From assembly GCF_004022215.1 (NCBI RefSeq), contig NZ_SAUZ01000017.1, positions 1-64,000 on the forward strand: DNA of 64,000 nucleotides, in the 5' to 3' direction. Positions 3,554-60,016 of this stretch are shown in pieces (position 1 is the stretch's first letter; each line of letters starts with the position of its first letter). The notes under the pieces were generated by a model that was given only the letters and a program-made list of their open reading frames with translations, was not told where the DNA came from and did no database searches. Made by a program: the position numbers and the translations under genes. This DNA comes from Paenirhodobacter populi (lineage in GTDB: Bacteria > Pseudomonadota > Alphaproteobacteria > Rhodobacterales > Rhodobacteraceae).

Positions 3554-3611
3554 AGGGGGCCAGCCCCCTCGGCGCAAGCGCCTCACCCCCGGGATATTTA
3601 TGGAAACACGA
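3554..3611 (-). repeat. Intergenic hairpin repeat, copy 2
   Basis: On the minus strand: CGTGTTTCCATAAATAT, then CCCGGGGGTGAG, the stem GGCGC-TT-GCGCC, then the stem AGGGGGC-TG-GCCCCCT. It lies between two divergent genes (nitrilase and D-aminopeptidase), so unlike most copies it follows no gene end. Confidence 0.9.
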
Positions 3612-3655
3612 CAGCCCGGAGGCGTTTCGGGCGGTCATGGAAAGGAGCCCTCCCC

Positions 3656-5221
3656 GTGGAAGATTTCAATGCCGGAGCCGTCGAGGCCGTTCTCGATTCC
3701 CTGCCGAAGACCGTTCAGGGGCCGGGCGGGGTGGCGGGCGTCGTCAAAGACGGGCGCATCGTCGCGGCCCGCGCCTGGGGCTATGCCGACCTGACCGACG
3801 CGCGCCCGATGACCGCCGCGACGCGGATGCCGATCTGTTCGATCTCGAAGCAGTTCACCTGCGGCACGCTTCTGGCGACGGCGGGCGGGCCCGAGGTGTT
3901 CGATGACCGTCTGAAGGATTATCTGCCCCGGTTCGAGGGCGCGCTGCCCACCGTGCGGCAATTGTGCGACAACCAGTCGGGCCTGCGCGACTACTGGGCG
4001 CTGACGGTGCTGCATGGCGCGCGCGCCGAGCAGGAATTCCGCCGCGAGGATGCGCTGCCGCTGATCGCGCGGATGCGGACCGGGCATTTCGCGCCGGGCA
4101 CGCAATATTCCTACTGCAACTGCAATTTCCGTATCCTTGGCGAGATGATCATGGCCCATACCGGGCGCGGGCTGGAGGATCTTTACCGCGAGCATATCTG
4201 GGGCCCGGCGGGGATGGAGACGGCCGTTCTGACCGCCGATACCCGCGCCCCGGTAGATGGTGTCGTGGGCTATGAAGGCAGTGCCGATCACGGCTATCTG
4301 CCCGCCGACAACGGCATCTACTGGATCGGGGATGCGGGGATTTCGGCCTCGCTCAACGACATGCTGGCCTATGAGGCATGGATCGACGCGACGCGCGACG
4401 ACCCGCAGTCGATCTACCGCCGGCTGAGCGGAACGCCGCATTTCGCCGATGGCACCCGCGCGTGGTATGGCTACGGGCTGGCGCATGAGCGGATCGGTGA
4501 TGTGGACTTCACCGGCCACGGCGGGGCGCTGCGCGGCTTTCGCGCCCATCGGATGAACGCCCGGTCGGCGCGGCTGTCGGTGGTGGTCATGCTCAACCAC
4601 GAGGCGGATGCCCATGCCTGCGCGGCGCGGATCGCGCGGGCGGCGCTTGGCCTGCCGGATCCCGCCGAGCCGCCGATGCCCGAGGGCTGGGACGGGCTGT
4701 GGCTCGACCGTGACCGTGGGATGATCGCGCGTATCGTGACGGACCGGACCTCGGCCCGGCTGTTCTATGCGACGGGGCCGGTGCGGTTGCTGGCGACGGA
4801 GGACGGGGCGCTGGCCGCGCCGAACCTGCGGGTCGAGCGCGACGGGGCGGGGCTGCGCCTTGCCATCGCCGGCGAGAACACCCTGCGCCATCTGGAGCCG
4901 CTGGACGAAATCGACGCGGCGGATGGTGCCGCCATCGCCGGGGAGTATGAAACCGACGAGCTTGAGGCCCGCCTGCGGATCGAGGCCCGCGACGGCGGTG
5001 TTTTCGCCCGGTTCGAGGGGATGCTGGGTCAGGGCCGGATGGAACAGATGATCCCCGTGGCGCAGGATATCTGGGCGGTGGTGACGCGCCGCTCGATGGA
5101 TGCGCCGGCGCCAGGGATCTGGACCTTCCGGATCGCGCGGGATGCGGCGGGCCAGGTCACGGGCGGCACGCTTGGCTGCTGGCTCGCGCGCGGGATCGGT
5201 TATCGCAGGATCGGTGGCTGA
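3656..5221 (+). CDS. dap: D-stereospecific aminopeptidase, serine hydrolase family
   Basis: A 521-residue protein, almost exactly the length of Ochrobactrum anthropi D-aminopeptidase (520). It has the penicillin-binding fold signature at matching positions: Ser62-Ile-Ser-Lys65 (CSISKQF), Tyr153 in YSYCN, and HGG near residue 288. The region after about residue 335 fits the two extra beta-barrel domains (DAP B and C) that distinguish the aminopeptidase from class C beta-lactamases. Known family members remove N-terminal D-amino acids from short peptides; there is no signal peptide, so it is cytoplasmic. GTG 3656 is chosen because AAGGAG sits 8 bases upstream; an open frame reaching back to 3302 lacks a ribosome-binding site. 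It probably acts on D-amino-acid peptides from wall turnover (inference). Confidence 0.87.
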   Translation: MEDFNAGAVEAVLDSLPKTVQGPGGVAGVVKDGRIVAARAWGYADLTDARPMTAATRMPICSISKQFTCGTLLATAGGPEVFDDRLKDYLPRFEGALPTVRQLCDNQSGLRDYWALTVLHGARAEQEFRREDALPLIARMRTGHFAPGTQYSYCNCNFRILGEMIMAHTGRGLEDLYREHIWGPAGMETAVLTADTRAPVDGVVGYEGSADHGYLPADNGIYWIGDAGISASLNDMLAYEAWIDATRDDPQSIYRRLSGTPHFADGTRAWYGYGLAHERIGDVDFTGHGGALRGFRAHRMNARSARLSVVVMLNHEADAHACAARIARAALGLPDPAEPPMPEGWDGLWLDRDRGMIARIVTDRTSARLFYATGPVRLLATEDGALAAPNLRVERDGAGLRLAIAGENTLRHLEPLDEIDAADGAAIAGEYETDELEARLRIEARDGGVFARFEGMLGQGRMEQMIPVAQDIWAVVTRRSMDAPAPGIWTFRIARDAAGQVTGGTLGCWLARGIGYRRIGG

Positions 5222-5313
5222 GGCGGCTCTTTGGTCTTTTTCACCGGGGCCTCTTCTTTTATGCAACGCCATGGAAGGTCCGCGGGGCCGCACTTGGACG
5301 GAAAGATCGCAGC

Positions 5314-6717
5314 ATGACGGCGCCCGCGCGGGGAACGACCGGAACGGCGGTGGCGCCGGTGGTCTGGATGCAATGCCTGATGCTGGCGGCGCTGGTGATC
5401 GGCGAGATCGGCGGCTTCGGGGTGGTTTCGCTGATCGCCGCGGCGCTTGCCGTGGCGGCGACGGTGATGCAGTGGCCCCGGCTTCTGCCGCAGGCGCGGC
5501 TGTTCTTCGCCCTCGCGGCGGCGGGCGCGGGGGCGGTGGTGGTTCTGGCGCCACAGGCGATCCCGCAACTGCGCATCGCCCTGTTGCAGGGCGTCGGCTT
5601 CGGGGCGCTGATGATGGTGCTGGGCCTTTTGCGCCAGCCGGTGCGGCGCGCCGCCATCACCCGCGCGGCGGCGGAATACCTGTTGTCCTTCGGCGCGCGC
5701 GGGCGGTTCGCCGCGATCCTCAGCGGTTCGCATTTCATGAGCCTGATGTTCAACATCGGCATCATCGCGATGATCGGCGATCTGGTCCATGCCGGAAAGG
5801 GGCCCGAGGCGCGCACCGATCCGCCGCGCCGGGCGGTGGTTCTGGCGGCGATGCGGGGGGCGGCGCTGGCCACGGTCTGGTCGCCGATCGGGCTCGGTTT
5901 CGCGATCGTCACGGCGGGCATACCGGGGATCCCTGCGCTGCCCTTCATGGTGCTGTGCTTCGGCTTCACGCTGGCGGCGATGGCGCTCTCCGCGCTGCGC
6001 CCGATGCTGCCGGCCGAGGCCTCGGGCCGCCATTCCGCCGCGCCGGTCACGACGGCGGGGCAGGGCTCGCCCAAGGCGGTGGCCGAGACGCTGGCCGTAA
6101 GCGCGCTGCTGCTTGGTCTCGCCATCGTGCTGCATCAGTGGCTGGAGGTCAGCTTCACCATCGTTTCGGTGTTCCTGCTGCCGGTCTTTTCCTTCATCTG
6201 GCTGGCGCTGGAAAACCGCTCCGAACATGGCGCGCTGGCGCCGCGGTTGTGCAATGCGCTCACCGCGATGGGGGATCTGCGATCCGAAAGCGCCATCTTC
6301 ATGTCGGCCAATGTCATCGGCGCCTGCCTGTCGATCGCGGTGCAGGCCTCGCCCCTGTGGGGCGCGATCCAGTCCGGCGGTTTCGCCGGGCTGCCGGTGC
6401 TGCTGGCCTGTCTGGTGATCGTGCCGCTGGTCGCCGCCTGCTACCTGCCGAACTCCATCGTCGTGGTGATGGCGGTGCAGCTTCTGGGGCCGACGCCCCT
6501 GGGGCAGGACCATCCGATGGCGCTTGGCCTGACGCTGGCGGTGGGCTGGGCGATGGCCATCGGCGTCTCGCCGATCAGCGCGATGACACTGATCTCAGGC
6601 GCGTTCTGCGCGGTGCCGCCGCGGCGCATCGCCTGGGGCTGGAACGTGCCCTTCGTCGTCTCTGTCACGGCGCTGGCGGCGGTCGCGGTGACGCTGGTTT
6701 ACCTTGCGGGATGGTAG
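5314..6717 (+). CDS. Polytopic inner-membrane protein of unknown function
   Basis: A 467-residue, very hydrophobic protein with roughly eleven to twelve candidate membrane segments. They fall in two halves separated by a polar stretch around residues 235-255 (SGRHSAAPVTTAGQGSPKAV). Short polar re-entrant-like motifs sit in each half: FGARGRFAAILSGSHFMS in the first, and DLRSESAIFMSANVIGA plus VGWAMAIGVSPISAM in the second. This two-fold layout with Ser/Asn-rich breaks resembles ion-transporter-superfamily permeases, but I do not recognise the family. It begins 92 bases after the D-aminopeptidase gene in the same direction. A role in importing its substrates or exporting its products is conceivable but unproven. 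The ribosome-binding site (GGAAAGA) is weak. Confidence 0.7.
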   Translation: MTAPARGTTGTAVAPVVWMQCLMLAALVIGEIGGFGVVSLIAAALAVAATVMQWPRLLPQARLFFALAAAGAGAVVVLAPQAIPQLRIALLQGVGFGALMMVLGLLRQPVRRAAITRAAAEYLLSFGARGRFAAILSGSHFMSLMFNIGIIAMIGDLVHAGKGPEARTDPPRRAVVLAAMRGAALATVWSPIGLGFAIVTAGIPGIPALPFMVLCFGFTLAAMALSALRPMLPAEASGRHSAAPVTTAGQGSPKAVAETLAVSALLLGLAIVLHQWLEVSFTIVSVFLLPVFSFIWLALENRSEHGALAPRLCNALTAMGDLRSESAIFMSANVIGACLSIAVQASPLWGAIQSGGFAGLPVLLACLVIVPLVAACYLPNSIVVVMAVQLLGPTPLGQDHPMALGLTLAVGWAMAIGVSPISAMTLISGAFCAVPPRRIAWGWNVPFVVSVTALAAVAVTLVYLAGW

Positions 6718-6797
6718 AACCGGGCCAAAAGGTCTTTCATGAAGCCGTCCCAGCGATTACATGACCTGCGTGACATGATCGAAACAAGGGGCAGACG

Positions 6798-7994
6798 GTG
6801 GAACTGAAGCATCTCGAACCGCGGGAAAACTGGCAGCAGATCGCGCAGGATGCGGGCTTCAGCTTCCACACGATGTATGGCGAGCCCTACTGGAACGAGG
6901 CGCGCGCCTACCGCTTCACCCTGCGCGAGATCGAGGAGGATATCGAGGATCCCTCGACCGAACTCCACCAGATGTGCCTCGACGCCGTGGGGCGGATCAT
7001 CGAGAGCCAAGAGCTGATGGCCCGCATGGGCCTGCCCGAAAAGCACTGGGATTACATCGCCGGCACGTGGCGCGGCGGCGATCCCGGGCTGTATGGCCGG
7101 ATGGATCTGGCTTATGGCGGCACGGGTCCGGCGAAACTGCTGGAATACAACGCCGATACGCCCACGTCGCTGTTCGAAAGCACCTCGTTCCAGTGGCAAT
7201 GGCTGGAGGACCAGATCACCGCCAAGGTCCTGCCGCGCGACGCCGACCAGTTCAACGGCACATGGGAAGCGCTGGTCGCGCGCTTCGCGGAAATGTGGCC
7301 CGGCGGCGACACGATCTATTTCACCTCGGTTCCCGAGAACAGCGAGGATTACGGCACGGTCGAGACCATGGCCTGGGCCGCGAAGGAAGGCGGGGTCAAC
7401 CCGCTCTACCTGACCATCGACAAGATCGGCGTCAGCGACGATGGCCGCTTCCTCGACGCCGACGGCTATCCGATCCGCTTCCTGTTCAAGCTCTACCCGT
7501 GGGAGAACATGCTGAACGAGCCCTTCGCCGATTATCTCGCGCAAAGCGGCTGTTTCATGCTGGAACCCGCGTGGAAGGCGCTCTTGTCGAACAAGGCGAT
7601 CCTGCCGATGCTGTGGCGCTTCAACGAGGGGCATCCGAACCTGCTGCCCGCCTTTTTCGAGGACGAATTCACCGAGGCCGGCCCCGCCGTGCAACGTGCG
7701 GAAGCCGCCTTTGCCGCCGGGCGGGTGCTGAAGCCGATCTTCTCGCGCGAGGGGGCATCGGTGCGCATCCTCGACGCCGCGGGGGGCGAGATCGCGGCCT
7801 CCACCGATCACGGCTACGACGAACATCCCAGAATCGTGCAGGCCTATCACCCGCTGCCCGAATTCGACGGCAGCCATCCGGTGATCGGGGCATGGATCAT
7901 CGGCGACACCTGCACCGGCATGGGCCTGCGCGAGGATCGCGGCCTGATCACCCAGAACCTGAGCCAGTTCATTCCGCATTACATCGAGGGTTGA
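6798..7994 (+). CDS. ygiC: Glutathionylspermidine synthase-like ATP-grasp protein (YgiC family)
   Basis: A 398-residue protein that starts at GTG 6798. It matches the YgiC/YjfC group of the glutathionylspermidine-synthase-like ATP-grasp family: the N-terminal W-x-x-I-A-x-D-x-GF block, the LLEYNADTPTSLFES motif, the ENSEDYGTVETM strand, and a C-terminal SREGASVRILD loop followed by GSHPVIGAWIIGDTCTGMGLRED. Family enzymes ligate a carboxyl group to an amine using ATP; the true substrate of YgiC is not settled, and E. coli YgiC does not make glutathionylspermidine. It is followed after one base by a YgiB-like lipoprotein gene, the same gene association as ygiB-ygiC in enterobacteria (order reversed here), which supports a joint envelope-related role. 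Confidence 0.85.
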   Translation: MELKHLEPRENWQQIAQDAGFSFHTMYGEPYWNEARAYRFTLREIEEDIEDPSTELHQMCLDAVGRIIESQELMARMGLPEKHWDYIAGTWRGGDPGLYGRMDLAYGGTGPAKLLEYNADTPTSLFESTSFQWQWLEDQITAKVLPRDADQFNGTWEALVARFAEMWPGGDTIYFTSVPENSEDYGTVETMAWAAKEGGVNPLYLTIDKIGVSDDGRFLDADGYPIRFLFKLYPWENMLNEPFADYLAQSGCFMLEPAWKALLSNKAILPMLWRFNEGHPNLLPAFFEDEFTEAGPAVQRAEAAFAAGRVLKPIFSREGASVRILDAAGGEIAASTDHGYDEHPRIVQAYHPLPEFDGSHPVIGAWIIGDTCTGMGLREDRGLITQNLSQFIPHYIEG

Positions 7995-7995
7995 G

Positions 7996-8565
7996 ATGAA
8001 GCGTTCCCGGAACTTCCGTCCCCTGACCATCGGCCTGATCGGCGCCTCCGCCTTCGCGCTTGCCGCCTGCAAGGAGGAAACCGAACAGGCCACGGCCTAT
8101 CCCGACCTGTCCGCATGCCTCGCCGACGCGAGCCGCGGCTCCGCCCCGGTGACCGAGGAGCAATGCCGCGTCGCCTATGCGCAGGCCTTGCAGACGGTCA
8201 ACGACTCCGGGCCGAAATACGATGCGCTTGCAGCCTGCGAGGAACAGCATGGCGTCGGCAACTGCCAGCAGGCGGAAAATCCGGGCGGCGGCATGGGCAG
8301 CATGTTCATGCCGCTGCTGACCGGGTTCCTGCTTGGCAAGATGATGGGCGGCGGAATGATGTCGCAGCCGCTGACACCCACCAAGAACGGCACCTTCACC
8401 ACGCCGGGCGGCACGCAGTTCAACAACAACCGGGGCGTGGCGACGGTGCCCACCTCGACCTTCACCAACAAATCCACCGCCGGGTGGAACAACGCGCAAT
8501 CGGCCGCCCGCTCGACCGGCGGCTTCGGCTCGACGATGAGAAGCACGGGCGGCGTCGGCGGCTGA
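7996..8565 (+). CDS. ygiB: YgiB-like (DUF1190) lipoprotein
   Basis: A 189-residue protein with a lipoprotein signal: basic MKRSRNFR, hydrophobic stretch, lipobox LAAC with Cys25. Mature residues 26-95 carry spaced cysteines (DLSACLADA, EEQCRVAY, LAACEEQHG, GNCQQAE) typical of the UPF0441/DUF1190 family. The C-terminal half is a low-complexity Gly/Met/Thr/Asn/Ser tail (GGGMGSMFMPLLTGF, then NNN and TGG motifs). The gene starts one base after the ygiC-like gene, with GAGGG as ribosome-binding site. It is probably anchored in the outer or inner membrane and partners the ATP-grasp enzyme; its function is unknown. Confidence 0.85.
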   Translation: MKRSRNFRPLTIGLIGASAFALAACKEETEQATAYPDLSACLADASRGSAPVTEEQCRVAYAQALQTVNDSGPKYDALAACEEQHGVGNCQQAENPGGGMGSMFMPLLTGFLLGKMMGGGMMSQPLTPTKNGTFTTPGGTQFNNNRGVATVPTSTFTNKSTAGWNNAQSAARSTGGFGSTMRSTGGVGG

Positions 8566-8583
8566 CCCGGCCGCACGCGCTGA

Positions 8584-8735
8584 CAGGCTGCTGAAAACGT
8601 CCGTGTGACGGGGTAGGGCTTGGCCGGAAACCGGGAAATCTGTCTTGCACTGGCCGGAAAAAACCGGATTTCAGGTCGATCTCATAGAACGATTTTGGCA
8701 ATGATGCCTGCTCAAAATCCCTTCTCAGCAGCCTG
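8584..8735. mobile_element. 152-bp MITE-like element or IS scar
   Basis: The ends CAGGCTGCTGA (8584-8594) and TCAGCAGCCTG (8725-8735) are perfect 11-bp inverted repeats. The CAGGCTGCTGA(A)AA terminus is of the type seen at the ends of IS5/IS1182-like insertion sequences. Inside there is no coding frame, but two small palindromes, CCGG-AAA-CCGG (8624-8634) and CCGG-AAAAAA-CCGG (8654-8667), sit in similar contexts. The middle is more AT-rich than its surroundings. No target duplication is obvious at the borders. It lies just after the ygiB-like gene. It is either a non-autonomous miniature element or the joined ends of a deleted IS. Confidence 0.65.
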
Positions 8736-8775
8736 CCACAGACGTTTGAACCCCCCGAACGAACCTTCTGCCATT

Positions 8776-8832
8776 CGTGTTTCCATAAATATCCCGGGGG
8801 TGAGGCGCTTGCGCCGAGGGGGCTGGCCCCCT
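8776..8832 (+). repeat. Intergenic hairpin repeat, copy 3
   Basis: Plus-strand orientation: CGTGTTTCCATAAATAT, CCCGGGGGTGAG, stem GGCGC-TT-GCGCC, stem AGGGGGC-TG-GCCCCCT. It lies between convergent genes: the ygiB-like gene upstream (after the MITE) and hmuV ending 29 bases beyond. Confidence 0.93.
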
Positions 8833-8861
8833 CGCACCCCATCCACCCGCGAGTCCCGTCG

Positions 8862-9641
8862 CTACCCGCGCCCGGCCATCTGCGGCAGCAGCCAAGGCCC
8901 CTGCGCCGGAGCGGTATTGATCCGGATCCGGCTGCGATAGGCGGCGGACAGGCGATCGTCGGTCAGCACGGCCTCGGGCGGACCGTCGGCCAGCACCCGG
9001 CCCTCGGACATCAGCACCACCCGGTCCGCGTGCATCGCCGTCAGGTTCAGGTCATGCATCACCGCGACCACGCCGCCCCCCGTATCGGCAAAGCGCCGCA
9101 GCACCTCCATCACCAGGATCTGGTGGCCGATGTCGAGTGCGGCCACCGGCTCATCCACGAACAGCCAGCAGGCGCGGCCCTGCGTCACCGGCTGCCATAT
9201 CTGCGCCCGCGCCCGCGCCAGATGACCGCGCGCCTGTTCGCCACCCGACAGATCGTGCAGGAAGTGATCGGCCTTGGCCGACAGACCGACCTCGGCGATC
9301 GCCATATCCACCACGGCGGGGGCATGGGCGCTGTGCCCGGCTTCAAACCCCATCCGCACCACCTCGCGCAGGGTGAAGGGAAAGCCCACCTGCACCGCCT
9401 GCTGCAAAACGGCGCGGCGCAGGGCCAGCAACCGGGGCGGCATCGCCGCAACCGGCGCAGCGTCCAAGGTCACCGCGCCGGGGCCGTCCAGATCGCCGGT
9501 CAACCGGCGCAACAGCGTCGTCTTCCCCGATCCGTTCGGGCCGACGATCACCGTCATCTCGCCGGGGCGGGCGGTGAAATCGACGCCATGCAGGATCTTG
9601 GTCCCGCCCAGTACCGCACCGATGCCGCGCGCCTCGATCAT
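8862..9641 (-). CDS. hmuV: Haem ABC transporter ATP-binding protein
   Basis: A 259-residue ABC ATPase: Walker A GPNGSGKTT (residues about 34-42), signature LSGGEQARGHLARARAQ, Walker B CWLFVDEPVAALD, and H-loop VAVMHDLNLT. The Q-loop region (LQQAVQVGFPFTLREVV) is typical of iron/haem FecE/HmuV ATPases. The signature has ARGH where most relatives have a QRV-type sequence directly after LSGGEQ, a mild departure. It powers import of haem through HmuU from the periplasmic HmuT. It is the last gene of the hmu operon, one base after hmuU, and is followed by a hairpin repeat in the convergent gap. Confidence 0.93.
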   Translation of the reverse strand: MIEARGIGAVLGGTKILHGVDFTARPGEMTVIVGPNGSGKTTLLRRLTGDLDGPGAVTLDAAPVAAMPPRLLALRRAVLQQAVQVGFPFTLREVVRMGFEAGHSAHAPAVVDMAIAEVGLSAKADHFLHDLSGGEQARGHLARARAQIWQPVTQGRACWLFVDEPVAALDIGHQILVMEVLRRFADTGGGVVAVMHDLNLTAMHADRVVLMSEGRVLADGPPEAVLTDDRLSAAYRSRIRINTAPAQGPWLLPQMAGRG

Positions 9642-9642
9642 C

Positions 9643-10704
9643 TCACATCACCGTTCCCGGCCGGCGCGACAGCAGCAGCCACAGAAAGACCGGCGCGCCG
9701 ATCAGCGCCATCAGGATGCCGATGGGCAGCTCCGCCGGGGCCACGATCAGCCGCGCCACGGTATCCGCCACGATCAGCAGCGCCGCCCCGAACAGCGCCG
9801 AGGCCGGGATCAGCCTGCGGTGATCCGGCCCGATCGCCAGCCGCAGCACATGCGGCGCGACGATGCCGACGAAGCCGATCCCGCCCGACACCGCGACCGC
9901 CGCCCCCGTCATCGCCGCGACGGCGAAGATCGCGCCGCGCTTCACCCGCTCGACCGGCACGCCCATGTGGCGCGCGGCGGGCTCGCCCATCGCCATCGCG
10001 TTCAGCCCGCGCGCCAGAAGCGGCGCGACCGCCAGCCCCGCCAGCAGCACCGGCGCGGCGGCGGCAAGCTTCACCCAGTTCGCCCCGGCGAGCGAGCCGA
10101 GCCCCCAGAAGGTCAGGTCGCGCAACTGCCGGTCGTCGGCCAGATAGATCAGGATCCCGGTGAAGGCATTCGCCAGCGCCCCGAGCACGATCCCCGCCAG
10201 CAGCATCGTGGTGACCGAGGTATGCCCCCGCAGCCGCGCCAGCCGATACAGGATCAGCGTGGTGATCCCGGCACCGGCAAAGGCGAAGACCGGCGCCAGA
10301 TACATCCCCGTCACCGCATGGATCCCCGCGGGGAGCGCGCCGCCAAGGACGATCGCGCCGACCGCGCCCAGCCCACCCCCGGCGCTGACGCCGACCAATC
10401 CGGGATCGGCCAGCGGATTGCGAAACAGCCCCTGCATCAGCACGCCCGACACGGCGAGTCCCGCCCCCACCAGCGCGCCGAGGATCAGCCTTGGCAGCCG
10501 GATGCTGAACAGGATCGCCGTTTCCGCGGGGTTCAGCGGACGGAGGAACATCTCCCACGGCAGGATGCCCGAGGCACCGAGGCTGAGGCTCGCCCCCGCC
10601 ACCAGCACCAGCAGCACCGCCAGACCCGCGACCACCGGCCCCGCGGGCAGGCGCGCGGGCGCGCGGCGGTTTCGTATCGGCGCGGATGCCCCGAGCACCG
10701 TCAT
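9643..10704 (-). CDS. hmuU: Haem ABC transporter permease
   Basis: A 353-residue FecCD/BtuC-type permease with about ten membrane segments. Family hallmarks are visible: RLPRLILGALVGAGLAVSGV followed by MQGLFRNPLADPGLVG, a cytoplasmic GEPAARHMGVPVERVK loop (the ATPase-coupling L-loop), and GFVGIVAPHVLRLAIG near the C-terminus. It forms the haem channel in the inner membrane with HmuV. The start codon overlaps the hmuT stop by four bases (ATGA), so translation is coupled. Confidence 0.94.
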   Translation of the reverse strand: MTVLGASAPIRNRRAPARLPAGPVVAGLAVLLVLVAGASLSLGASGILPWEMFLRPLNPAETAILFSIRLPRLILGALVGAGLAVSGVLMQGLFRNPLADPGLVGVSAGGGLGAVGAIVLGGALPAGIHAVTGMYLAPVFAFAGAGITTLILYRLARLRGHTSVTTMLLAGIVLGALANAFTGILIYLADDRQLRDLTFWGLGSLAGANWVKLAAAAPVLLAGLAVAPLLARGLNAMAMGEPAARHMGVPVERVKRGAIFAVAAMTGAAVAVSGGIGFVGIVAPHVLRLAIGPDHRRLIPASALFGAALLIVADTVARLIVAPAELPIGILMALIGAPVFLWLLLSRRPGTVM

Positions 10705-13131: not shown

Positions 13132-13178
13132 CGTCGGTTCCGTGTGTGGGGCCGGGTCCGGAAACCCGGCGGGGGAGG

Positions 13179-20228: not shown

Positions 20229-20250
20229 AAAGGCGCCGCGCCTCCTCTTT

Positions 20251-20308
20251 CGTGTTTCCATAAATATCCCGGGGGTGAGCCCGGAACGGGCGAGGGGGCT
20301 GGCCCCCT
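20251..20308 (+). repeat. Intergenic hairpin repeat, copy 4
   Basis: Plus orientation, 22 bases after the glcC stop. The 5' core is the same, but the central stem is GCCCG-GAA-CGGGC instead of GGCGC-TT-GCGCC: both arms changed and pairing was kept. The terminal stem AGGGGGC-TG-GCCCCCT is unchanged. Confidence 0.93.
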
Positions 20309-20388: not shown

Positions 20389-20446
20389 AGGGGGCCAGCC
20401 CCCTCGGCGCAAGCGCCTCACCCCCGGGATATTTATGGAAACACGA
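20389..20446 (-). repeat. Intergenic hairpin repeat, copy 5
   Basis: Minus orientation, beginning 34 bases after the stop of the minus-strand IclR gene. The central stem is GGCGC-TT-GCGCC. Together with copy 4 it forms a tail-to-tail pair, with each copy following the gene on its own side. Confidence 0.93.
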
Positions 20447-20480
20447 AAAGGGGTTTGTTTCGGAATTCCTGAGGTCCGGC

Positions 20481-28682: not shown

Positions 28683-28734
28683 GCCGCGGGCTCTGCCCCC
28701 GGCCGTTTGCAGCCCGCCAGATCTTTCCTGCTTT

Positions 28735-28791
28735 CATCTTTCCGAAAATATCCCGGGGGTGAGGCGCTTGCGCCGAGGGGGCTGGCCCCCT
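28735..28791 (+). repeat. Intergenic hairpin repeat, copy 6
   Basis: Plus orientation, 52 bases after the hypothetical gene. The 5' end is the CATCTTTCCGAAAATAT variant; it continues CCCGGGGGTGAG, stem GGCGC-TT-GCGCC and stem AGGGGGC-TG-GCCCCCT. It sits between convergent genes. Confidence 0.92.
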
Positions 28792-35230: not shown

Positions 35231-35295
35231 AGGGGGCCAGCCCCCTCTTTGCGCTGACGCGCAAATTCACCCCCGGGATATTTATGGAAAAACGA
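35231..35295 (-). repeat. Intergenic hairpin repeat, copy 7
   Basis: Minus orientation, 19 bases past the gamma-glutamyltransferase stop. The 5' variant is CGTTTTTCCATAAATAT. The central stem is TTTGCGC-gtca-GCGCAAA (7 bp), unrelated in sequence to other copies yet fully paired. The terminal stem AGGGGGC-TG-GCCCCCT is intact. Confidence 0.92.
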
Positions 35296-35314
35296 CGGCA
35301 GGGACCGGCGCGCG

Positions 35315-42781: not shown

Positions 42782-42829
42782 ACAGGACGGAACACCACGG
42801 CAGGGCCGCGATCGCATCCGTGCTTTACC

Positions 42830-42915
42830 CGTTCCCTCCGCCGGCATGAACCGGATCAGGTTCGATGGGTTGGCAAAGCCTCTCAGCCCCGGTTTCCCGG
42901 GACACCCCAACGAGT
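42830..42915 (-). ncRNA. TPP riboswitch (THI element)
   Basis: On the minus strand the invariant parts appear in order: GGGGTG, CTGAGA in the P3-side loop, ACCC, then GAACCTGATCCGGTTCATGC and CGGCGGAGGGA. These form the P2-P3 pyrimidine-sensing arm and the P4-P5 pyrophosphate-sensing arm. It precedes thiY, and thiamine pyrophosphate binding should lower thiYZX expression. Confidence 0.96.
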
Positions 42916-43012
42916 AATCGCGCGAAGCCTACCCCGGCGCGGGGCGCGGTGCAACGGGGGAAGGGGCAGGTTGTTCGGGATGACGGGCGCGGGTGCGGGC
43001 GGTGAGGGAAGA

Positions 43013-43071
43013 AGGGGGCCAGCCCCCTCGCGCGTTCCGCGCTCACCCCCGGGATATTTATGGAAACACGA
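43013..43071 (-). repeat. Intergenic hairpin repeat, copy 8
   Basis: Minus orientation in the divergent gap between the TPP riboswitch and the antiporter gene. The 5' core is identical to copies 2-5, the central stem is GCGCG-GAA-CGCGC, and the terminal stem AGGGGGC-TG-GCCCCCT is intact. It lies about 97 bases upstream of the riboswitch, so it is not 3' of any visible gene. Confidence 0.92.
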
Positions 43072-43193
43072 AAGGCAGAAGGCGGGTCGGGGGCAAGATC
43101 CGTTGGGGGGAGGCGGGCAGGTGTGCCTGAAAAATGAACCTGCGGTTGCGCCGGGATTTGCACCGTCGCGGCCGCGCATGTAGCTATGGGGAA

Positions 43194-49531: not shown

Positions 49532-49532
49532 G

Positions 49533-51074: not shown

Positions 51075-51083
51075 GAGGACGAT

Positions 51084-52484: not shown

Positions 52485-52485
52485 T

Positions 52486-52508: not shown

Positions 52509-52685
52509 CCGGGAGGGCGCGGGCGACCGCGTCCCCTATTTTCTTGCGCGGCGTCGAATTGCCGAAATCCGCGTCAATCCCGTCACACTCCATCGCGGCA
52601 ACATGCGGCGGCGCGCATGCGGACTTTACCCGTGGGAAGGAGCCGCTACAGTGTCACAAACTAAACCGTCGAAAGGAGCAAAGCG

Positions 52686-54428: not shown

Positions 54429-54451
54429 GGTCCTGAAACGGTTTCTGCCGT

Positions 54452-54495
54452 CGTTTTTCCATAAATATCCCGGGGGCGAGGGGGCAGCGCCCCCT
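54452..54495 (+). repeat. Intergenic hairpin repeat, copy 9 (short form)
   Basis: Plus orientation, 23 bases after the phosphorylase gene: CGTTTTTCCATAAATAT, CCCGGGGGCG, then directly the terminal stem AGGGGGC-agc-GCCCCCT. The central hairpin is missing. It is again in a convergent gap. Confidence 0.85.
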
Positions 54496-54521
54496 CTGCG
54501 CCGCTGCCACGAAACCGGACG

Positions 54522-55742
54522 CTATTCCGTATCCGCCATATCCGCCGCCACCGCCGCCCGGAAATCCGACAGCAGCGTCGGATCGGCCGCATGGACGAGG
54601 TTCCAGTTCGGGATGAAGGGCAGCTCCTGCGGATTGTCGAGGAACATCTGCCCCGCCTGCATGATGTTCTCGGCGAACATCGCGATCGAGGTTTCCTCGG
54701 AATGGCGCTCGAACACCAGCCCGTTCATCATCGCATCATGCGAATAGACGTCGAGCAGATCGAGCGCCCGGCGGTGATAGGTCGCCTTCAGCGTGCGGAA
54801 GATGTTGGGCGAAAACACCGTCCCGTCCGCCGCCAGCTTGCGGAAGATCGCCTTGCAGATGTCGAGCGACATGCGGTTCAGCCCGGCCTGCGCATCCTCG
54901 GCCGAAAGGTCCTGATGCTTGTGGTCGTAGATGTCGGCGATCTCCACCTGACAGACGGCGCGCGGGCCCATGTTGCGCCAGGCCTCGGAGAGGATGCCGA
55001 TCTCCAGCCCCCAGTCGGCGGGCATGCGCAGGTCGGGCAGGGTGGCGGTGCGCATGGCGAATTCGCCCGACAGCGGGTAGCGGAAGGCGCGCAGGTAATC
55101 GATGTAGTCGCGGTCCCCCAGCACCTTCTTCAGCGCGATCAGCAGCGGGCTGACAAGATTGCGCGTCACCCGCCCGCCCATCCGGTTGTTGCCGATCCGG
55201 GGGTAGAAGCCCTTGGACAGGTGATAGGGGAAGGCCGGATGCACCACCGGATAGACCAGCCGCGACAGCATCCCGCGTTCATAGGTGACGATGTCGCAAT
55301 CGTGGATCGCCATCACCGCGCTGTCGGCGCAGGCGATCAGATAGCCGATGCAGCCCCAGACGTTGCGGCCCTTGCCCGGCTCGATCGGGCCGATGCCCAA
55401 GGGTTCCAGCCGGTCCATGATCGCCCGCACCCGCGGCCCGTCGTTCCAGATCACCACATGGTTCTGCGGCAGCACGGAAAAGAACTCGCGCGCATGGCGG
55501 AACTGCGCCTCATCCGCCGCATCGAGACCGATGATGATCCGGTGCAGGTATTTCACCTTCGACAGTTCCTGCAGGATCTTGCCGAGCGCCGGGCCTTCGA
55601 GTTCGGAAAACAGCGAGGGCAGGATCAGCGTGATCTTGCGCACCTGCGCAAAGGTTTCCAGCCGGTATTCAAGCTCTTCAAGCGGGCGGGTGCGCAGATT
55701 GTGGAACTGCGCGATATTCCCGTTCTGCTGGAAATCAGCCAT
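54522..55742 (-). CDS. gpgS: Glucosyl-3-phosphoglycerate synthase
   Basis: A 406-residue GT-A glycosyltransferase of the GT81 type: KITLILPSLFSELEGPALGK, YLHRIIIGLDAADEAQF, the metal-binding AIHDCDIVTYERGML (D-x-D), and KGFYPRIGNNRMGGRVTRNL. It transfers glucose from an NDP-glucose to 3-phosphoglycerate to give glucosyl-3-phosphoglycerate in the cytoplasm. The phosphatase gene lies 39 bases upstream in the same direction, and a glucosylglycerate phosphorylase gene converges on it. This context supports the glucose rather than the mannose version. ATG 55742. Confidence 0.86.
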   Translation of the reverse strand: MADFQQNGNIAQFHNLRTRPLEELEYRLETFAQVRKITLILPSLFSELEGPALGKILQELSKVKYLHRIIIGLDAADEAQFRHAREFFSVLPQNHVVIWNDGPRVRAIMDRLEPLGIGPIEPGKGRNVWGCIGYLIACADSAVMAIHDCDIVTYERGMLSRLVYPVVHPAFPYHLSKGFYPRIGNNRMGGRVTRNLVSPLLIALKKVLGDRDYIDYLRAFRYPLSGEFAMRTATLPDLRMPADWGLEIGILSEAWRNMGPRAVCQVEIADIYDHKHQDLSAEDAQAGLNRMSLDICKAIFRKLAADGTVFSPNIFRTLKATYHRRALDLLDVYSHDAMMNGLVFERHSEETSIAMFAENIMQAGQMFLDNPQELPFIPNWNLVHAADPTLLSDFRAAVAADMADTE

Positions 55743-55781
55743 GATCCTGTCCTTTCAGGCGCGCTGCGCCCCTGTGCCACG

Positions 55782-56555
55782 TCATCCGGCGGGCAAGGTG
55801 GCCAGAACATGTTCCAGCCCCTCCCGCCATCCTTCCGGGCCGCTGGCCTGCGTGCGCAGGATGCGGCCTTCGTCTTCGCCCGGCAGCGGCGGCAGGCCGG
55901 GGCCGTGATCGTTGCGGATGACGATGCCGCGATCCGCCGCCGCGATCATTTCCGCATCATTCGGCGCATCGCCAAGCGCCACCGTCAGATCGGGGCTGAA
56001 GCGCGCGATCAGCTCGGCCATCCGTCTGGCCTTGGTGCCGCCGTAGCTGAGCGTCAGGAACCGTCCGCCGCGACGCCCGCTGATGCCCTGCGCCTGCAAC
56101 GCCGACAGGAACGCCGTAAGGTCAGCTTCGGATCCCTGCCACAGGCCCGGCTCGGAAAATCCCCGCCTGCGGGCAAGGATCGCATCCGCTTCCGACAGGC
56201 CGGTGACAGTGCGGACCTCCTCCACGCTCATGTCGGAAAAACCCCGGAAGGGCGCGCCGGTCGCGCGGATCGCCGCACAGAGCCTGCGGTAGGGGCCGTC
56301 GTCCAGCGCGCCCTCAAAGATCGCCGCGCCGTTTTCCACGATCGCGGGCCAGCGCGTCAGGCCAAGCCGTTCCTGCCAGACCGCGATTTCCGCCGCCGTC
56401 TTGGACGAGGCCAGAATGACCGGAACCCCGTCCCCGGCAAGCCGCCGCAACATCGGCTGCGCAGGCGCATAGTCATAGGTTTCGTGATCGAGGAGCGTGC
56501 CGTCGAGATCGGTGAAGATCAGCAGGCGTGGGCGCGTGTTCGGAGTCATCACCAT
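55782..56555 (-). CDS. gpgP: Glucosyl-3-phosphoglycerate phosphatase (HAD-IIB, MpgP-like)
   Basis: A 257-residue HAD phosphatase of the mannosyl-3-phosphoglycerate phosphatase group: motif I FTDLDGTLLDHETYDY (nucleophile Asp), motif II VILASSKTAAEI, motif III Lys in GGTKARRMAELI, motif IV VALGDAPNDAEMIAAAD. It removes the phosphate from glucosyl-3-phosphoglycerate, which yields the compatible solute glucosylglycerate. It is cotranscribed with gpgS. ATG 56555 is used; a second ATG six bases on is possible. The cap domain lies at about 90-190. Confidence 0.86.
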   Translation of the reverse strand: MVMTPNTRPRLLIFTDLDGTLLDHETYDYAPAQPMLRRLAGDGVPVILASSKTAAEIAVWQERLGLTRWPAIVENGAAIFEGALDDGPYRRLCAAIRATGAPFRGFSDMSVEEVRTVTGLSEADAILARRRGFSEPGLWQGSEADLTAFLSALQAQGISGRRGGRFLTLSYGGTKARRMAELIARFSPDLTVALGDAPNDAEMIAAADRGIVIRNDHGPGLPPLPGEDEGRILRTQASGPEGWREGLEHVLATLPAG

Positions 56556-56621
56556 GACCCTAGGGCAAACGCGGCGCGAAAGATAGCCGCAGCGCCGCCA
56601 AAATCCCCGACCCGCGCCGGA

Positions 56622-57269
56622 TCACGCCGATCCATGCGTGACGATGCGGCCTGTCACCATGTCGAGCAGCTTGTCCAGATAGCGCGTCTGCGCATCGGCT
56701 GCCGTCATGTCCTGCCGCAGGACCGCGGTGCGGATGATCATGTCCCCGAAAACGGCGTCGAAAAGCATCTCGGGCAGGTCCTCATGGTCGAAATCGGCGG
56801 GCAGCCTGCCGCGGGCGATTTCCTCCTCGAAAGCCTCGTTCATCAGCTTGTACCAGACGCCCGGCCCATGCGTATGCCACGCCACGCCGATCTCGGGCGC
56901 CAGCTTCGCGCCGGTGACGATCAGGCGGAAGAAATCCGGATGGCTCGGCTTCAGGATGACGCGGATCAGTTCGACAAGGATGGCGCGCAATCTGGTGCGC
57001 AGGTCGGCGTCGCGCGGCGCATGGGGGGCAATGTCGGACAGGAAATCGGCGCACAGATATTGCACCGCCTCGACCATCAGCCCGTGCCGGTCGCCGAAAT
57101 GACGATAGAGCGTCGCCTTGGACGCCCCCGCCTCGCTGGCGATCAGATCCATGCTGGTGCCGTCGAGGCCGTCGCGCAACAGGATGCGCGCGGCCTCGGC
57201 GACCAGTTCCCGCCGCCTCGCCTTGCCTCTGGAGATCTTCGGAGAGGCGGGGCGAGGAGCGGTTGGCAT
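56622..57269 (-). CDS. TetR-family regulator
   Basis: A 215-residue protein. The TetR helix-turn-helix is at residues about 18-65 (RRELVAEAARILLRDGLDGT, IASEAGASKATLYRHFGDRH). The C-terminal ligand domain resembles the TetR_C type found in AefR-like regulators (HPDFFRLIVTGAKLAPEIGV). It starts six bases after the stop of the PQQ dehydrogenase gene and 66 bases before gpgP, all on the minus strand. It may thus be read from the dehydrogenase promoter and control that operon. The effector is unknown. Confidence 0.86.
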   Translation of the reverse strand: MPTAPRPASPKISRGKARRRELVAEAARILLRDGLDGTSMDLIASEAGASKATLYRHFGDRHGLMVEAVQYLCADFLSDIAPHAPRDADLRTRLRAILVELIRVILKPSHPDFFRLIVTGAKLAPEIGVAWHTHGPGVWYKLMNEAFEEEIARGRLPADFDHEDLPEMLFDAVFGDMIIRTAVLRQDMTAADAQTRYLDKLLDMVTGRIVTHGSA

Positions 57270-57275
57270 ATGGGT

Positions 57276-59684
57276 CTACTTCTTGTCTGGCAGTGCGAAG
57301 GCGATGACATAATCACCGCGATCGGGGGACTGGCGCGCCCCACCGGCTACGATGACGATATACTGCTTACCCGTCACTGGCGAGATGTAACTCATCGGCG
57401 TGGCCTGCGCCCCGACCGGCAGGCGGCCTTTCCACAGTTCCTTGCCCGTTTCGATGTCCATCGCGCGCAGATAATAGTCCTGCGTGCCGGCGTAGAAGAC
57501 GATTCCCGAAGCCGTGACGACCCCGCCGCCAAGCGTCGGCATGCCAAGCGGCACCGGCAGACCGACCCGCAGGCCGTCCATCTTGACATCCTGCACGGTG
57601 CCGGCCGGACGTTCCCAGACAAGCTGCTGCGTCTTCAGGCTGACCGCGGCGAACACGCCCCACGGCGGCTGCTGGCACGGCAGGCCGAGCGGCGAGTTGA
57701 AGGCCTCGTGGTCGATGACGAAGGGCGTGCCGATCATCGGATAGGTCGATCCGACGCCGTGGCCCGAGACGAGCGAGTCCATGTCCACGCCTTCGGCCGG
57801 GCGCAAAGTCACCACCTGCGGCATGCGGATGTCGTTGACAAAGAGGAAACCGTTGCGCTTGTCCAGCGCCGCGCTGCCCCAGTTGAAGCCACCGTAGTAG
57901 CCCGGATAGATCAGCGTCGGTTCAAGGCTGGGGGCGGTGAATTCGCCCTTGTAGTTCAGCTTTTTGAACGCGATCCGGCAGGCGAGCTGGTCAAAGAATG
58001 TGGCGCCCCACATGTCCTGTTCGGTCAGCGGCTTGGTCCCGAAGGACGGCATGTCGACCGTGTAGGGCTGGGTCGGCGAAACGCGGTCGCCAAAGGCCAC
58101 TTCCTGCGGCACGGGGCGTTCCTCGACCTTCGAGATCGGTTCGCCGGTGCGGCGGTCCAGCATGAACAGCTGCCCGCGCTTGGTCGGCTGGATCAGCGCC
58201 GGGGTGCCGTCGGGCAGGTCATAGAGCGTCGGCTGCGAGGCGAGGTCATAGTCCCAGATGTCGTGATGCGCGGTCTGGAAGACCCATTTGTCGCGCCCCG
58301 TGGCGATATCCAGCGCGACCACGCCCGTCGAATATTTGTCGGTCAGCGGCGGGCGATCGCCACCCCAGAAGTCGGGCTGCTGATTGCCGAGCGGCATGTA
58401 GACGAGGCCGAGCTTTTCATCGAAAGCCGGATGGGTCCACATGTTCGGCGTCGAACGGGTGTAGGTTTCGCCTTCCGGCGGCAGGCGGGTGATCTCGGGG
58501 TTGCCCAGATCCCAGGCCCAGACCAGTTCCCCCGTATCGGCGGAAAAGGCCCGGATCACGCCCGAAGGCTCGTCCAGCGCGCGGCCGTCGAAGACCCAGC
58601 CGCCGACCACGATCAGGTTGCGGATGATCGTCGGCGCCGAGGTATAGGCGTAGGAGAAGCTATGGCCGAATTTCACATCGCCAAGGCCGGTCATCATCGA
58701 AACCTTGCCGTCCGTGCCGAAATCGGTGCAGAGCGCGCCGGTATCCGCGTCGAGCGCGACGATATCGGCGTCCATCGTCACCTGGATGATCCGGCGTTCG
58801 CACAGCGCGCCTGCTGCCGGGACCACATGGGTCTCGCCCTCGATCGGATAGGGGGCGGAGACGGCGGCGGGTTCGTAATAGCCGACACCACGGCAGCGGT
58901 TCCAGACGGTCTTGGTGTTCTGCAACTCGACCCGGTGACGCCATTTGACATCGCCCGTATCGGCGTTCAGCGCGATCACCTCGGAGGTCGGCGTGCAGGT
59001 GTAAACCGTGTCGCCGATCTGCGAGGGCGTGTTCTGCGATTCCGAGGCGCCCACGGCAAGCTCGCCCGAGCGGAACTGCCATGCGATCTGAAGATCCTTG
59101 ACGTTGTCCTTGTTTATCTTGTCGAAAGCGACGAAGCGCGTGCCCTCGGGATCGTTGCCGTAGAATTCCCAGTTGGCGGTGCCGTCATCCTGCAGCGCGA
59201 TGGGATCGTTCTGCGCGGCGACGTTGTTTTCGATCACGCCATGCGGCTTGAACATCGCGGCGAAGCCCGCCACCAGCAGCAGGGCAAAGACACCCGCCAC
59301 GGCGAAGCTTTCCTTGCGAAAGCGGCCGCCGGTCAGCAGCGGATGGATCAGCCCCGCGATCAGCCCCATGACGAGGAAGGGCGCCAGCCGCGGCACGAGG
59401 CCCCAGTAGTCGAACCCGACCTCATGGAGCGACCACAGCACGGTGAAGACCGTCAGCGCGGCCAGCAGAGCCGCCGCCGCCGGCCTGCGCAGGATATACA
59501 GGATCCCCGCCACCAGCATGACGACCCCGGCGATCAGGTAATACCAGCTTCCGCCGAGCGAAATCAGCTCGACCCCTCCGAGTCCCAGTCCAAGCCCGCT
59601 GAGCGCCAGCAGGCCGCCCAGAAGCCACAGGACAATGCGACTCCATCCGGTGGCCGAGGCCCCGGTGGCAGAGATTTTATCCAT
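57276..59684 (-). CDS. gcd: Membrane-bound PQQ-dependent dehydrogenase, glucose/quinate family
   Basis: An 802-residue quinoprotein, close to E. coli Gcd (796). Five membrane helices occupy residues about 12-145 and anchor it in the inner membrane. An eight-bladed PQQ propeller follows in the periplasm: ANWEFYGNDPEGTRF, RCRGVGYYEPA, FGHSFSYAYTSAPTI, NQQPDFWGGDRPP, FQTAHHDIWDYDLASQPTLY and AFNSPLGLPCQQPPWG. It oxidises D-glucose to gluconolactone (or quinate/shikimate in the sister group) with electrons to ubiquinone. Length and motifs favour glucose, but quinate cannot be excluded. No PQQ synthesis genes are in the window. ATG 59684. Confidence 0.9.
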   Translation of the reverse strand: MDKISATGASATGWSRIVLWLLGGLLALSGLGLGLGGVELISLGGSWYYLIAGVVMLVAGILYILRRPAAAALLAALTVFTVLWSLHEVGFDYWGLVPRLAPFLVMGLIAGLIHPLLTGGRFRKESFAVAGVFALLLVAGFAAMFKPHGVIENNVAAQNDPIALQDDGTANWEFYGNDPEGTRFVAFDKINKDNVKDLQIAWQFRSGELAVGASESQNTPSQIGDTVYTCTPTSEVIALNADTGDVKWRHRVELQNTKTVWNRCRGVGYYEPAAVSAPYPIEGETHVVPAAGALCERRIIQVTMDADIVALDADTGALCTDFGTDGKVSMMTGLGDVKFGHSFSYAYTSAPTIIRNLIVVGGWVFDGRALDEPSGVIRAFSADTGELVWAWDLGNPEITRLPPEGETYTRSTPNMWTHPAFDEKLGLVYMPLGNQQPDFWGGDRPPLTDKYSTGVVALDIATGRDKWVFQTAHHDIWDYDLASQPTLYDLPDGTPALIQPTKRGQLFMLDRRTGEPISKVEERPVPQEVAFGDRVSPTQPYTVDMPSFGTKPLTEQDMWGATFFDQLACRIAFKKLNYKGEFTAPSLEPTLIYPGYYGGFNWGSAALDKRNGFLFVNDIRMPQVVTLRPAEGVDMDSLVSGHGVGSTYPMIGTPFVIDHEAFNSPLGLPCQQPPWGVFAAVSLKTQQLVWERPAGTVQDVKMDGLRVGLPVPLGMPTLGGGVVTASGIVFYAGTQDYYLRAMDIETGKELWKGRLPVGAQATPMSYISPVTGKQYIVIVAGGARQSPDRGDYVIAFALPDKK

Positions 59685-60016
59685 GTCTTTTCCCAAAATA
59701 TGTCGGTTCACGACCGCGCGGGGCGGTGATTCCCTCCCGCAACGAAACTGCGCGGTTTCATTAGAGCACTTTTGCGTGTTCCGAAAGACATTTTGTCGCA
59801 CCCTTGCCCGTGGCGCATGGGGGGCTTGCGGGGGCGGTTCCGTCTCTGGGCCGGACGGGGTGTGTCAGGACAGGCGAAGCAAGGGGGCCAGCCCCCTCGC
59901 GGCTTCGCCGCTCACCCCCGGGATATTTCTGGAAAGATGAATGGAGAAGGAACTCCTGCGGAGAGGAAATGCGATCCGCGATCCGTGGAGCCATTTTTCC
60001 GTGGATTGTCAGACGG
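59685..60016. other. 332-bp gap between gcd and the HTH gene
   Basis: It contains repeat copy 10 (59882-59939). The rest is about 195 bases of gcd upstream sequence, with a more AT-rich stretch around 59750-59800 (TTAGAGCACTTTTGCGTGTTC) that is likely the promoter area. No coding frame was seen. Confidence 0.5.
59882..59939 (-). repeat. Intergenic hairpin repeat, copy 10
   Basis: Minus orientation, 77 bases after the stop of the minus-strand HTH gene. The 5' variant is CATCTTTCCAGAAATAT. The central stem is GCGGC-GAA-GCCGC; the terminal stem AGGGGGC-TG-GCCCCCT is intact. Confidence 0.93.

What the first reader, a model, noticed from the sequence alone, without database searches (positions are those of the whole stretch)
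3554..59939. Ten-copy intergenic element with a covarying central hairpin
Copies at 167-255, 3554-3611, 8776-8832, 20251-20308, 20389-20446, 28735-28791, 35231-35295, 43013-43071, 54452-54495 and 59882-59939 share a 5' core (CGTGTTTCCATAAATAT then CCCGGGGGTGAG) and a terminal stem AGGGGGC/GCCCCCT. The central stem differs but always pairs: GGCGC/GCGCC, GCCCG/CGGGC, TTTGCGC/GCGCAAA, GCGCG/CGCGC, GCGGC/GCCGC. Loops are TT, GAA or gtca. Changes on both arms that keep pairing indicate selection on a folded RNA or DNA hairpin, not mere sequence copying. About one copy per 6 kb is very dense.
Basis: seen in the sequence. Interest (0 to 1): 0.72.

Follow-up and report, generated by a model that had tools for sequence, protein, structure and literature searches.

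The report
Bacterial repeat coded for triple-stranded DNA
A short repeat scattered between genes of Rhodobacter-like bacteria changes over evolution by the rules of a three-stranded DNA fold, which suggests that cells, or the repeat itself, have kept a DNA triple helix because it does something.

Summary
The repeat is real: its core occurs 269 times in the 4.8-Mb genome, reversed control 0. Eight of ten listed copies have the covarying central hairpin; 54452 has a 3-nt spacer instead, and 167-255 is another module behind the same 5' block. The hairpin is an optional insert. The constant part is three runs: G1, G2 and C. G2 pairs with C; G1 matches G2 in length (4, 5 or 6) across many genera. 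Where G2 carries an A, G1 is its mirror image with A or T opposite: 56 of 61 with no alignment freedom, direct repeat 1 of 61; 33 of 38 after setting aside 23 of one shared type. Arms with C or T were found in 1 of 374 genomes each. This is the code of a class I purine-motif DNA triplex, related to E. coli BoxC/PIT/TMECO. New are the order-wide family, the hairpin-bearing loop and the covariation. Copies favour convergent gene ends (47 of 65 gaps) and avoid divergent ones (5 of 118). A two-way barrier at gene ends is my inferred guess. No fold was measured.

The parts
167..255 (-). Related copy of another module ('type C'): same 5' block ending AAATATCCCGGG, then GATAAGGCGGATCAGG..CCTTCCAGTGGAAGG..CCCGCC, then a GAGGGGCAGCGCCCCT hairpin
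3554..3617 (-). Long-form element; G1 3586-3590, hairpin insert 3569-3585, G2 3564-3568, C-run 3555-3559. Divergent gap 3409-3655
8769..8832 (+). Long-form element; G1 8796-8800, insert 8801-8817, G2 8818-8822, C-run 8827-8831. Convergent gap
20244..20308 (+). Long-form element; G1 20271-20275, insert 20276-20293, G2 20294-20298, C-run 20303-20307. Convergent gap, first of an inverted pair
20389..20452 (-). Long-form element; G1 20421-20425, insert 20404-20420, G2 20399-20403, C-run 20390-20394. Second of the inverted pair
28728..28791 (+). Long-form element; G1 28755-28759, insert 28760-28776, G2 28777-28781, C-run 28786-28790. Convergent gap
35231..35301 (-). Long-form element with the 24-nt insert TGAATTTGCGC..GCGCAAAGA; G1 35270-35274, insert 35246-35269, G2 35241-35245, C-run 35232-35236. 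Convergent gap
43013..43077 (-). Long-form element; G1 43046-43050, insert 43028-43045, G2 43023-43027, C-run 43014-43018. Divergent gap beside a TPP riboswitch
54445..54495 (+). Short-form element without central hairpin: G1 54472-54476, 3-nt spacer CGA 54477-54479, G2 54480-54484, C-run 54490-54494. Convergent gap
59882..59946 (-). Long-form element; G1 59915-59919, insert 59897-59914, G2 59892-59896, C-run 59883-59887. Tandem gap

Best explanation
The element is an intrastrand purine-motif DNA triplex of class I (reverse-Hoogsteen strand first, then purine strand, then pyrimidine strand), a Rhodobacterales relative in kind of the BoxC/PIT/TMECO repeats. G2 and C form the Watson-Crick hairpin. 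G1 folds back antiparallel on G2 as third strand (G.G-C, A.A-T, T.A-T). The link from G1 to G2 is a 3-nt turn (short form) or an independent covarying hairpin (long form, the usual one here). SHOWN by sequence: length lock, mirror symmetry, triplex letter code, homopurine restriction, covariation of the insert, intergenic placement. INFERRED: that it folds in vivo, in single-stranded DNA exposed by transcription or replication, nucleated at the adjacent AAATAYY. INFERRED and weaker (about 0.3): that at gene ends it works as an orientation-independent barrier that stops or insulates transcription coming from either side, in place of ordinary terminators.
For: Length lock: of 24 elements among 234 whose G2 is not 5 long, 22 have G1 of the same length; of 210 with G2 = 5, 208 have G1 = 5. 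Independent set, one locus from each of 30 genomes: G1 = 4 gives G2 = 4 in 27 of 30; G1 = 6 gives G2 = 6 in 26 of 30 (genomes). Without the 23 that share one border (GGGGT with AGGGG): 33 of 38, direct 1 of 38 anchored and 9 of 38 with any of five offsets, shuffles mean 14.1, highest 24. Arms with A: 35 of 374 genomes have the shorter A pattern, and 15 of its 30 loci have the full 7-nt arm GGAGGGC..GCCCTCC; the 7-nt C and T arms occur in 1 of 374 genomes each, neither element-like. Insert covariation. Gene context. Canonical terminators outside the element in 8 of 46 convergent gaps with an element against 11 of 20 without, p = 0.003.
Against: No biophysics was done. Holder 2015 saw no protection of triplex guanines in vivo for TMECO, and tells that PIT elements had no promoter or terminator activity. 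Five layers plus T.A-T are short for a triplex. Five of 61 arms break the code. Twenty-three of the 61 share one border by descent, and most T.A-T positions (23 of 31) come from it. The rule allows two letters opposite A; with A alone the mirror fits 25 of 61. The terminator anti-correlation appears only with the third, strictest detector with elements masked; two looser ones gave p = 1.0 and 0.17, tandem gaps show none (3 of 41 against 24 of 151, p = 0.21), and masking removes search space from element gaps. Copies in divergent gaps exist (2 of the 10 here).
Confidence: 0.64

Rival explanations
1. An RNA element: hairpins in the mRNA 3' UTR that act as a terminator or as a block to 3'-5' exonucleases. 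The G1 match would be incidental.
For: Central hairpin covaries; copies sit between genes, most often in convergent gaps; G/C hairpins work in both directions.
Against: A hairpin needs no G1, yet G1 is locked to G2 in length and mirrored. A hairpin tolerates C or T in the arm; these were found in 1 of 374 genomes each and not in elements. No U-run: 9 of 110 elements pass a simple terminator test in one sense and 0 of 110 in the other. No clear orientation preference in tandem gaps. Holder 2015 states that purine-motif triplexes cannot form in RNA.
Confidence: 0.15
2. A mobile palindromic repeat of the REP/BIME sort, kept by its own spread; the fold is the signal for its carrier and host function is incidental.
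For: 5 to 273 copies among 18 same-genus genomes; gene ends differ between species: of 66 gene-by-genome comparisons 4 have it in both, 15 only here, 6 only in the relative; species-specific 5' blocks; two copies in one gap lie in opposite orientation in 13 of 13 gaps.
Against: Y1 transposase PF01797 was found in 0 of the 26 element-bearing genomes tested (some of them incomplete), and the two family genomes that have it carry no element. No carrier enzyme identified. Strong avoidance of divergent gaps (5 of 118) needs selection anyway.
Confidence: 0.3
3. A Watson-Crick switch: G1 and G2 compete for the same C-run, as in an attenuator.
For: Explains equal run lengths.
Against: Needs G1 to be a direct copy of G2. 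Observed is the mirror image: of 60 asymmetric arms the anchored mirror rule fits 55, the direct rule 0 anchored and 8 with any of five offsets. T stands in G1 where the C-run has T (GGGTGGG with GGGAGGG..CCCTC).
Confidence: 0.02
4. The complementary strand forms a pyrimidine-motif triplex (C+.G-C, T.A-T), possibly in RNA.
For: The same mirror symmetry is required; Holder 2015 says such triplexes can form in RNA. Outside the shared border A is commoner than T opposite A (28 against 8).
Against: Where G1 has T opposite A the third strand would carry A, which is not a standard pyrimidine-motif triplet. T is seen at 31 of 65 A positions, 8 of 42 outside the shared border, and by eye in 9 listed rows of 7 genomes as GGGTGGG(G) with (G)GGGAGGG. 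Needs protonated C.
Confidence: 0.08
5. A protein binds three G-rich half-sites.
For: Three similar G/C runs with fixed order.
Against: 4/4/4, 5/5/5 and 6/6/6 elements coexist in this genome, each matched within itself; in L238 two neighbouring elements are 4/4/4 and 6/6/6. Fixed half-sites would not be matched copy by copy.
Confidence: 0.05

Closest known systems
TMECO / BoxC / PIT element (Holder et al. 2015, PMC4666352; PIT from Hoyne and Maher as told there)
   Same: Intrastrand purine-motif triplex code, intergenic, many copies, no strand bias, inverted pairs, strong copy-number differences between near relatives, association with variable loci
   Different: TMECO is class II (pyrimidine strand first, 9-nt stems, 3-nt second loop). 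Here class I, order G1-G2-C, core runs mostly 4-8 nt, usually (in this genome) a hairpin in the G1-G2 loop, an AT block in front, and placement at gene ends; TMECO was reported more often upstream than downstream of genes
H-DNA mirror repeats
   Same: Mirror-symmetric purine-rich G1-spacer-G2
   Different: The pyrimidine run lies on the same strand, so one strand alone can form the whole fold
REP / BIME with RAYT
   Same: Short intergenic palindromes, hundreds of copies in this genome, inverted pairs
   Different: No Y1 transposase found in element-bearing genomes; mirror triplex code
Bidirectional intrinsic terminators
   Same: G/C hairpin at convergent gene ends
   Different: No U-run; extra third strand; ordinary terminators occur in other gaps of the same genome

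Membership tests
Class I intrastrand purine-motif triplex | Order reverse-Hoogsteen, purine, pyrimidine on one strand, third strand antiparallel | tested here: met
   Mirror alignment with fixed ends, 56 of 61; 33 of 38 without the shared border type
Class I intrastrand purine-motif triplex | Only G.G-C, A.A-T, T.A-T triplets | tested here: met
   294 of 305 anchored positions; C or T arms in 1 of 374 genomes each, not element-like
   In this genome 85 of 91 parsed elements have 5-nt runs and most have a hairpin in the link; distinct TGA..GA links are 12-32 nt. Some relatives meet the limits, with 6-8 nt stems and 3-nt loops
Class I intrastrand purine-motif triplex | Folds as a triplex in vitro or in vivo | not testable with these tools
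   No biophysics available
TMECO / BoxC | Order C-G-G with 9-nt stems | tested here: not met
   Order is G-G-C
REP with RAYT | Y1 (RAYT) transposase in the genome | tested here: not met
   0 of 26 element-bearing genomes
REP with RAYT | Intergenic palindrome in high copy | tested here: met
Intrinsic terminator | G/C hairpin followed directly by a U run | tested here: not met
   9 of 110 in one sense, 0 of 110 in the other, by a simple test
Known Rfam RNA family | Match at gathering score | tested here: not met
   Only a TPP riboswitch in the window; at E up to 10 over two copies two matches far below their gathering scores

The most novel reading that the evidence does not exclude
Evolution itself shows that a three-stranded DNA fold has been selected in living bacteria: across Rhodobacterales the third strand coevolves with the duplex by the reverse-Hoogsteen code, and the fold serves at gene ends as a DNA-structure barrier that works in both directions and replaces ordinary terminators.
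Probability: 0.3. Interest if true: 0.92.

Novelty: new variant of a known kind. Interest (0 to 1): 0.76.

Why it matters
Whether intramolecular DNA triplexes form and matter in cells has stayed open; for TMECO, in vivo footprinting did not show them (Holder 2015, section 20 part 1). Coevolution of the third strand by the triplex letter code, with mirror symmetry that ordinary template copying does not produce, is a kind of evidence that I did not find in the papers searched (listings). It gives a large natural set of matched and mismatched copies in culturable bacteria, which makes the question directly testable.

Tried and rejected
RNA-family matches: none relevant. Literature search by literal core sequence: 110 papers, nothing relevant among the 30 listed. 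RAYT-driven REP: no transposase. Watson-Crick switch: first favoured after the length lock, then refuted by mirror symmetry. Terminator exclusion: two looser detectors gave no significant effect; only the strict masked one did. Bulk orthology with one relative gave 12 syntenic gaps, too few, and a paired-gap test of the window gave one gap; the one-sided test replaced them. Linkage of 5' block with insert is weak (p = 0.02), of block with terminal loop not seen (p = 0.12); insert with terminal loop is linked (p = 0.0002). let both alignments slide and let the mirror rule take A or T opposite A while the direct rule took identity only, and most of its 273 arms share the GA border. In one search the best mirror alignment was chosen, which favours the code (83 of 90 rows parsed, 7 dropped; opposite A: A 74, T 25, G 7, C 1). 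Searches were made to remove these freedoms. R-scape was not available and not run. Rows dropped: of 473 anchored sites with any hairpin, 332 had a CNNG-type closed hairpin, 317 were G-rich in G1, 230 of those purine-only in the arm, 61 with an A; in the other 87 the hairpin picked has pyrimidines (I did not check these one by one; the picker can take the central insert or another module).

Full report
WHAT IS THERE. The window is G000:C8:1-64000 of an unnamed 4.78-Mb genome. A same-genus relative, G003, has two contig lengths equal to those of Paenirhodobacter enshiensis DW2-9, so the window lies in that genus of Rhodobacteraceae. The core CCATAAATATCCCGGGGGTGAG occurs 269 times with up to 2 mismatches; the reversed control occurs 0 times. 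Read in sense 1 the element is: a pyrimidine-rich block such as CTTTC(A/G)T..TTCC, two free letters, AAATAT, CCC, a G-run (G1), a link, a second G-run (G2), a 4-5 nt loop C..G, and a C-run. Eight of the ten listed copies have the long link TGA-hairpin-GA. Copy 54452 has a 3-nt link, CGA. Copy 167-255 shares the 5' block only.

CENTRAL HAIRPIN. The covariation is real. Nineteen distinct 18-nt links gave 97.9% paired cells against 65.1% for shuffles, and 22 double-change cells against 7.0; no shuffle of 500 reached either. Two coarser measures (pairs with a double change, further pair types) did not exceed the shuffles, and relatedness is not corrected. Of 106 distinct TGA..GA links from all fetched sequences, 96 have a stem of at least 3 bp flush inside TGA/GA or TGAA/GA. 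But the hairpin is optional. In those 80 loci 37 elements have a link of 5 nt or less and 38 a long one. In a draw of 61 genomes the core (up to 1 mismatch) is in 18 of 18 of the genus, 8 of 19 others of the family, and 0 of 24 outside it.

LENGTH LOCK. G1 need not match anything if the element is a hairpin. Yet in 234 elements the three runs are 5/5/5 in 201, 4/4/4 in 17, 6/6/6 in 5, and mixed in 11. Many of these loci were found through a 5-G pattern, so I tested the others apart. In 149 family genomes, 52 have the 4-G form and 33 the 6-G form of G1. Reading one locus from each of 30 genomes: G1 = 4 goes with G2 = 4 in 27 of 30 (26 fully 4/4/4), and G1 = 6 with G2 = 6 in 26 of 30 (21 fully 6/6/6); G1 = 5 with G2 = 5 in 71 of 82 sites of the order-wide scan, chance hits included. 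The seven misses, by eye: four are the second module (L256, L300, L302, L306), L298 was misparsed and is 6/6/6, L265 has a longer G-run of which 4 pair, L277 has no hairpin. In L238 two neighbouring inverted elements are 4/4/4 and 6/6/6, so the match is within each copy.

MIRROR AND CODE. Elements whose arm carries an A tell what G1 matches. Examples: GAGGGGG-TCC-GGGGGAG, GGGAGG-TCC-GGAGGG, GGGAGGGG-TCC-GGGGAGGG, GGGAGAG-CGC-GAGAGGG. G1 is the mirror image of G2, not a copy. Opposite A: T 31, A 28, G 5, C 1. Opposite G: G 235, others 5. Twenty-three of the 61 are one type, the 4-G long form with the TG..GA border (GGGGT with AGGGG), and so not independent. Without them 33 of 38, in 38 loci, fit the mirror rule; the direct rule fits 1 of 38 anchored and 9 of 38 with any of five offsets; shuffles give 14.1 on average and at most 24; opposite A are A 28, T 8, G 5, C 1. 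Five exceptions are listed. Control: hairpin arms with C (GGCGGGC..GCCCGCC) and with T (GGTGGGC..GCCCACC) occur in 1 of 374 genomes each and neither is element-like. The A pattern searched was one letter shorter (GAGGGC..GCCCTC): 35 of 374 genomes; of its 30 loci, one per genome, 15 have the full 7-nt arm GGAGGGC..GCCCTCC. So the arm is homopurine, not merely paired.

READING. Purine strand, antiparallel third strand, and only G.G-C, A.A-T and T.A-T triplets: this is the purine-motif, reverse-Hoogsteen triplex. With the Hoogsteen strand first it is class I as defined in Holder et al. 2015 (PMC4666352; I read the outline, the abstract, sections 15, 16 and 18, the first parts of sections 3 and 20, and passages). 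Watson-Crick competition of G1 and G2 for the C-run would need a direct repeat and is refuted. The complementary pyrimidine triplex would put A opposite A where G1 has T. Template switching makes direct or inverted repeats, not mirror repeats (general knowledge), so I read the match as selection acting through the fold. The same paper states that purine-motif triplexes cannot form in RNA; hence single-stranded DNA.

WHERE COPIES SIT. I used my own simple gene caller; eight window genes next to copies were checked by Pfam and 7 matched a family. On 843 kb: gaps of 80 nt or more hold an element in 47 of 65 convergent, 41 of 169 tandem and 5 of 118 divergent cases; in tandem gaps 21 of 46 copies lie on the genes' strand. 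Order-wide, 75 elements: 26 convergent, 33 tandem (11 same strand, 22 opposite; p = 0.08), 2 divergent, 1 in a gene, 13 at an edge; gaps of 80 nt or more in the same loci, which were chosen for holding the core: 38 convergent, 126 tandem, 56 divergent. Two copies in one gap: 13 of 13 in opposite orientation. Convergent gaps of 60-600 nt with an element hold a canonical terminator outside it in 8 of 46, those without in 11 of 20 (p = 0.003; coding control 13 of 271). Two looser detectors showed no significant difference (p = 1.0 and 0.17), and tandem gaps show none (p = 0.21), so this is weak support.

GAIN AND LOSS. Of 66 gene-by-genome comparisons of gene ends, 4 have an element in both (3 gaps, matching orientation), 15 only here, 6 only in the relative, 41 in neither; several share a gene or a gap, so they are not independent. 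The 5' block is species-specific. Copy numbers in the genus range from 5 to 273. This fits the instability reported for TMECO, and also a mobile repeat. A Y1 transposase was found in 0 of the 26 element-bearing genomes, so the REP/RAYT route is unlikely; another carrier is not excluded.

FUNCTION. Most likely, in my view: single-stranded DNA exposed by a passing polymerase, starting at AAATAYY, folds into the triplex and blocks or insulates polymerases from either side. It would thereby serve as an end point for converging genes. This is inference; the E. coli relatives are reported to lack terminator activity. Keeping by the element's own spread is the main rival, and both may hold.

NOVELTY. 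The kind (intrastrand triplex repeat) is known. I found no mention of Rhodobacter, Paracoccus, Ruegeria or Alphaproteobacteria in the main text of Holder 2015, and no paper on such an element in this order in the listings of the searches named. Passages of three more papers (PMC3733652, PMC7866481, PMC12306157) gave nothing on it. The long form lies outside the loop limits of the published searches as told in Holder 2015 (1-6 nt there, 0-10 nt in Hoyne). The evolutionary covariation by the triplex code is, as far as I could see, new.

Noticed in passing
42816-42919 (-): TPP riboswitch (70.5 bits) in the divergent gap that also holds the copy at 43013; the neighbouring + gene is a sodium/hydrogen exchanger.
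   Followed up: no
167-255; also L256, L300, L306: A second structured module behind the same 5' block (..GGCGGATCAGG..CCTTCCAGTGGAAGG..CCCGCC / ..GAACGC), with paired changes between copies, found in other genera too.
   Followed up: partly
L012 about 6.4-6.8 kb (own genome C1 66.4-66.8 kb); L238; L081, L107: Element pairs whose 5' blocks face each other; in relatives these can form one long hairpin (..GGATATTT..AAGATGAA / TTCACCTT..AAATATCC..).
   Followed up: partly
own genome C5 about 46.3-46.6 kb (L042): A convergent gap with several tandem degenerate copies of the second module.
   Followed up: no
L118 near 6.1 kb (- strand reading): Tandem array of the terminal hairpin plus CTGATCTTTTGTG: two units and the start of a third in the printed stretch.
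   Followed up: no
28735-28791 and G003 ortholog: At one shared site both species keep the same two free letters before AAATAT while the rest of the 5' block is species-specific; may be chance.
   Followed up: no
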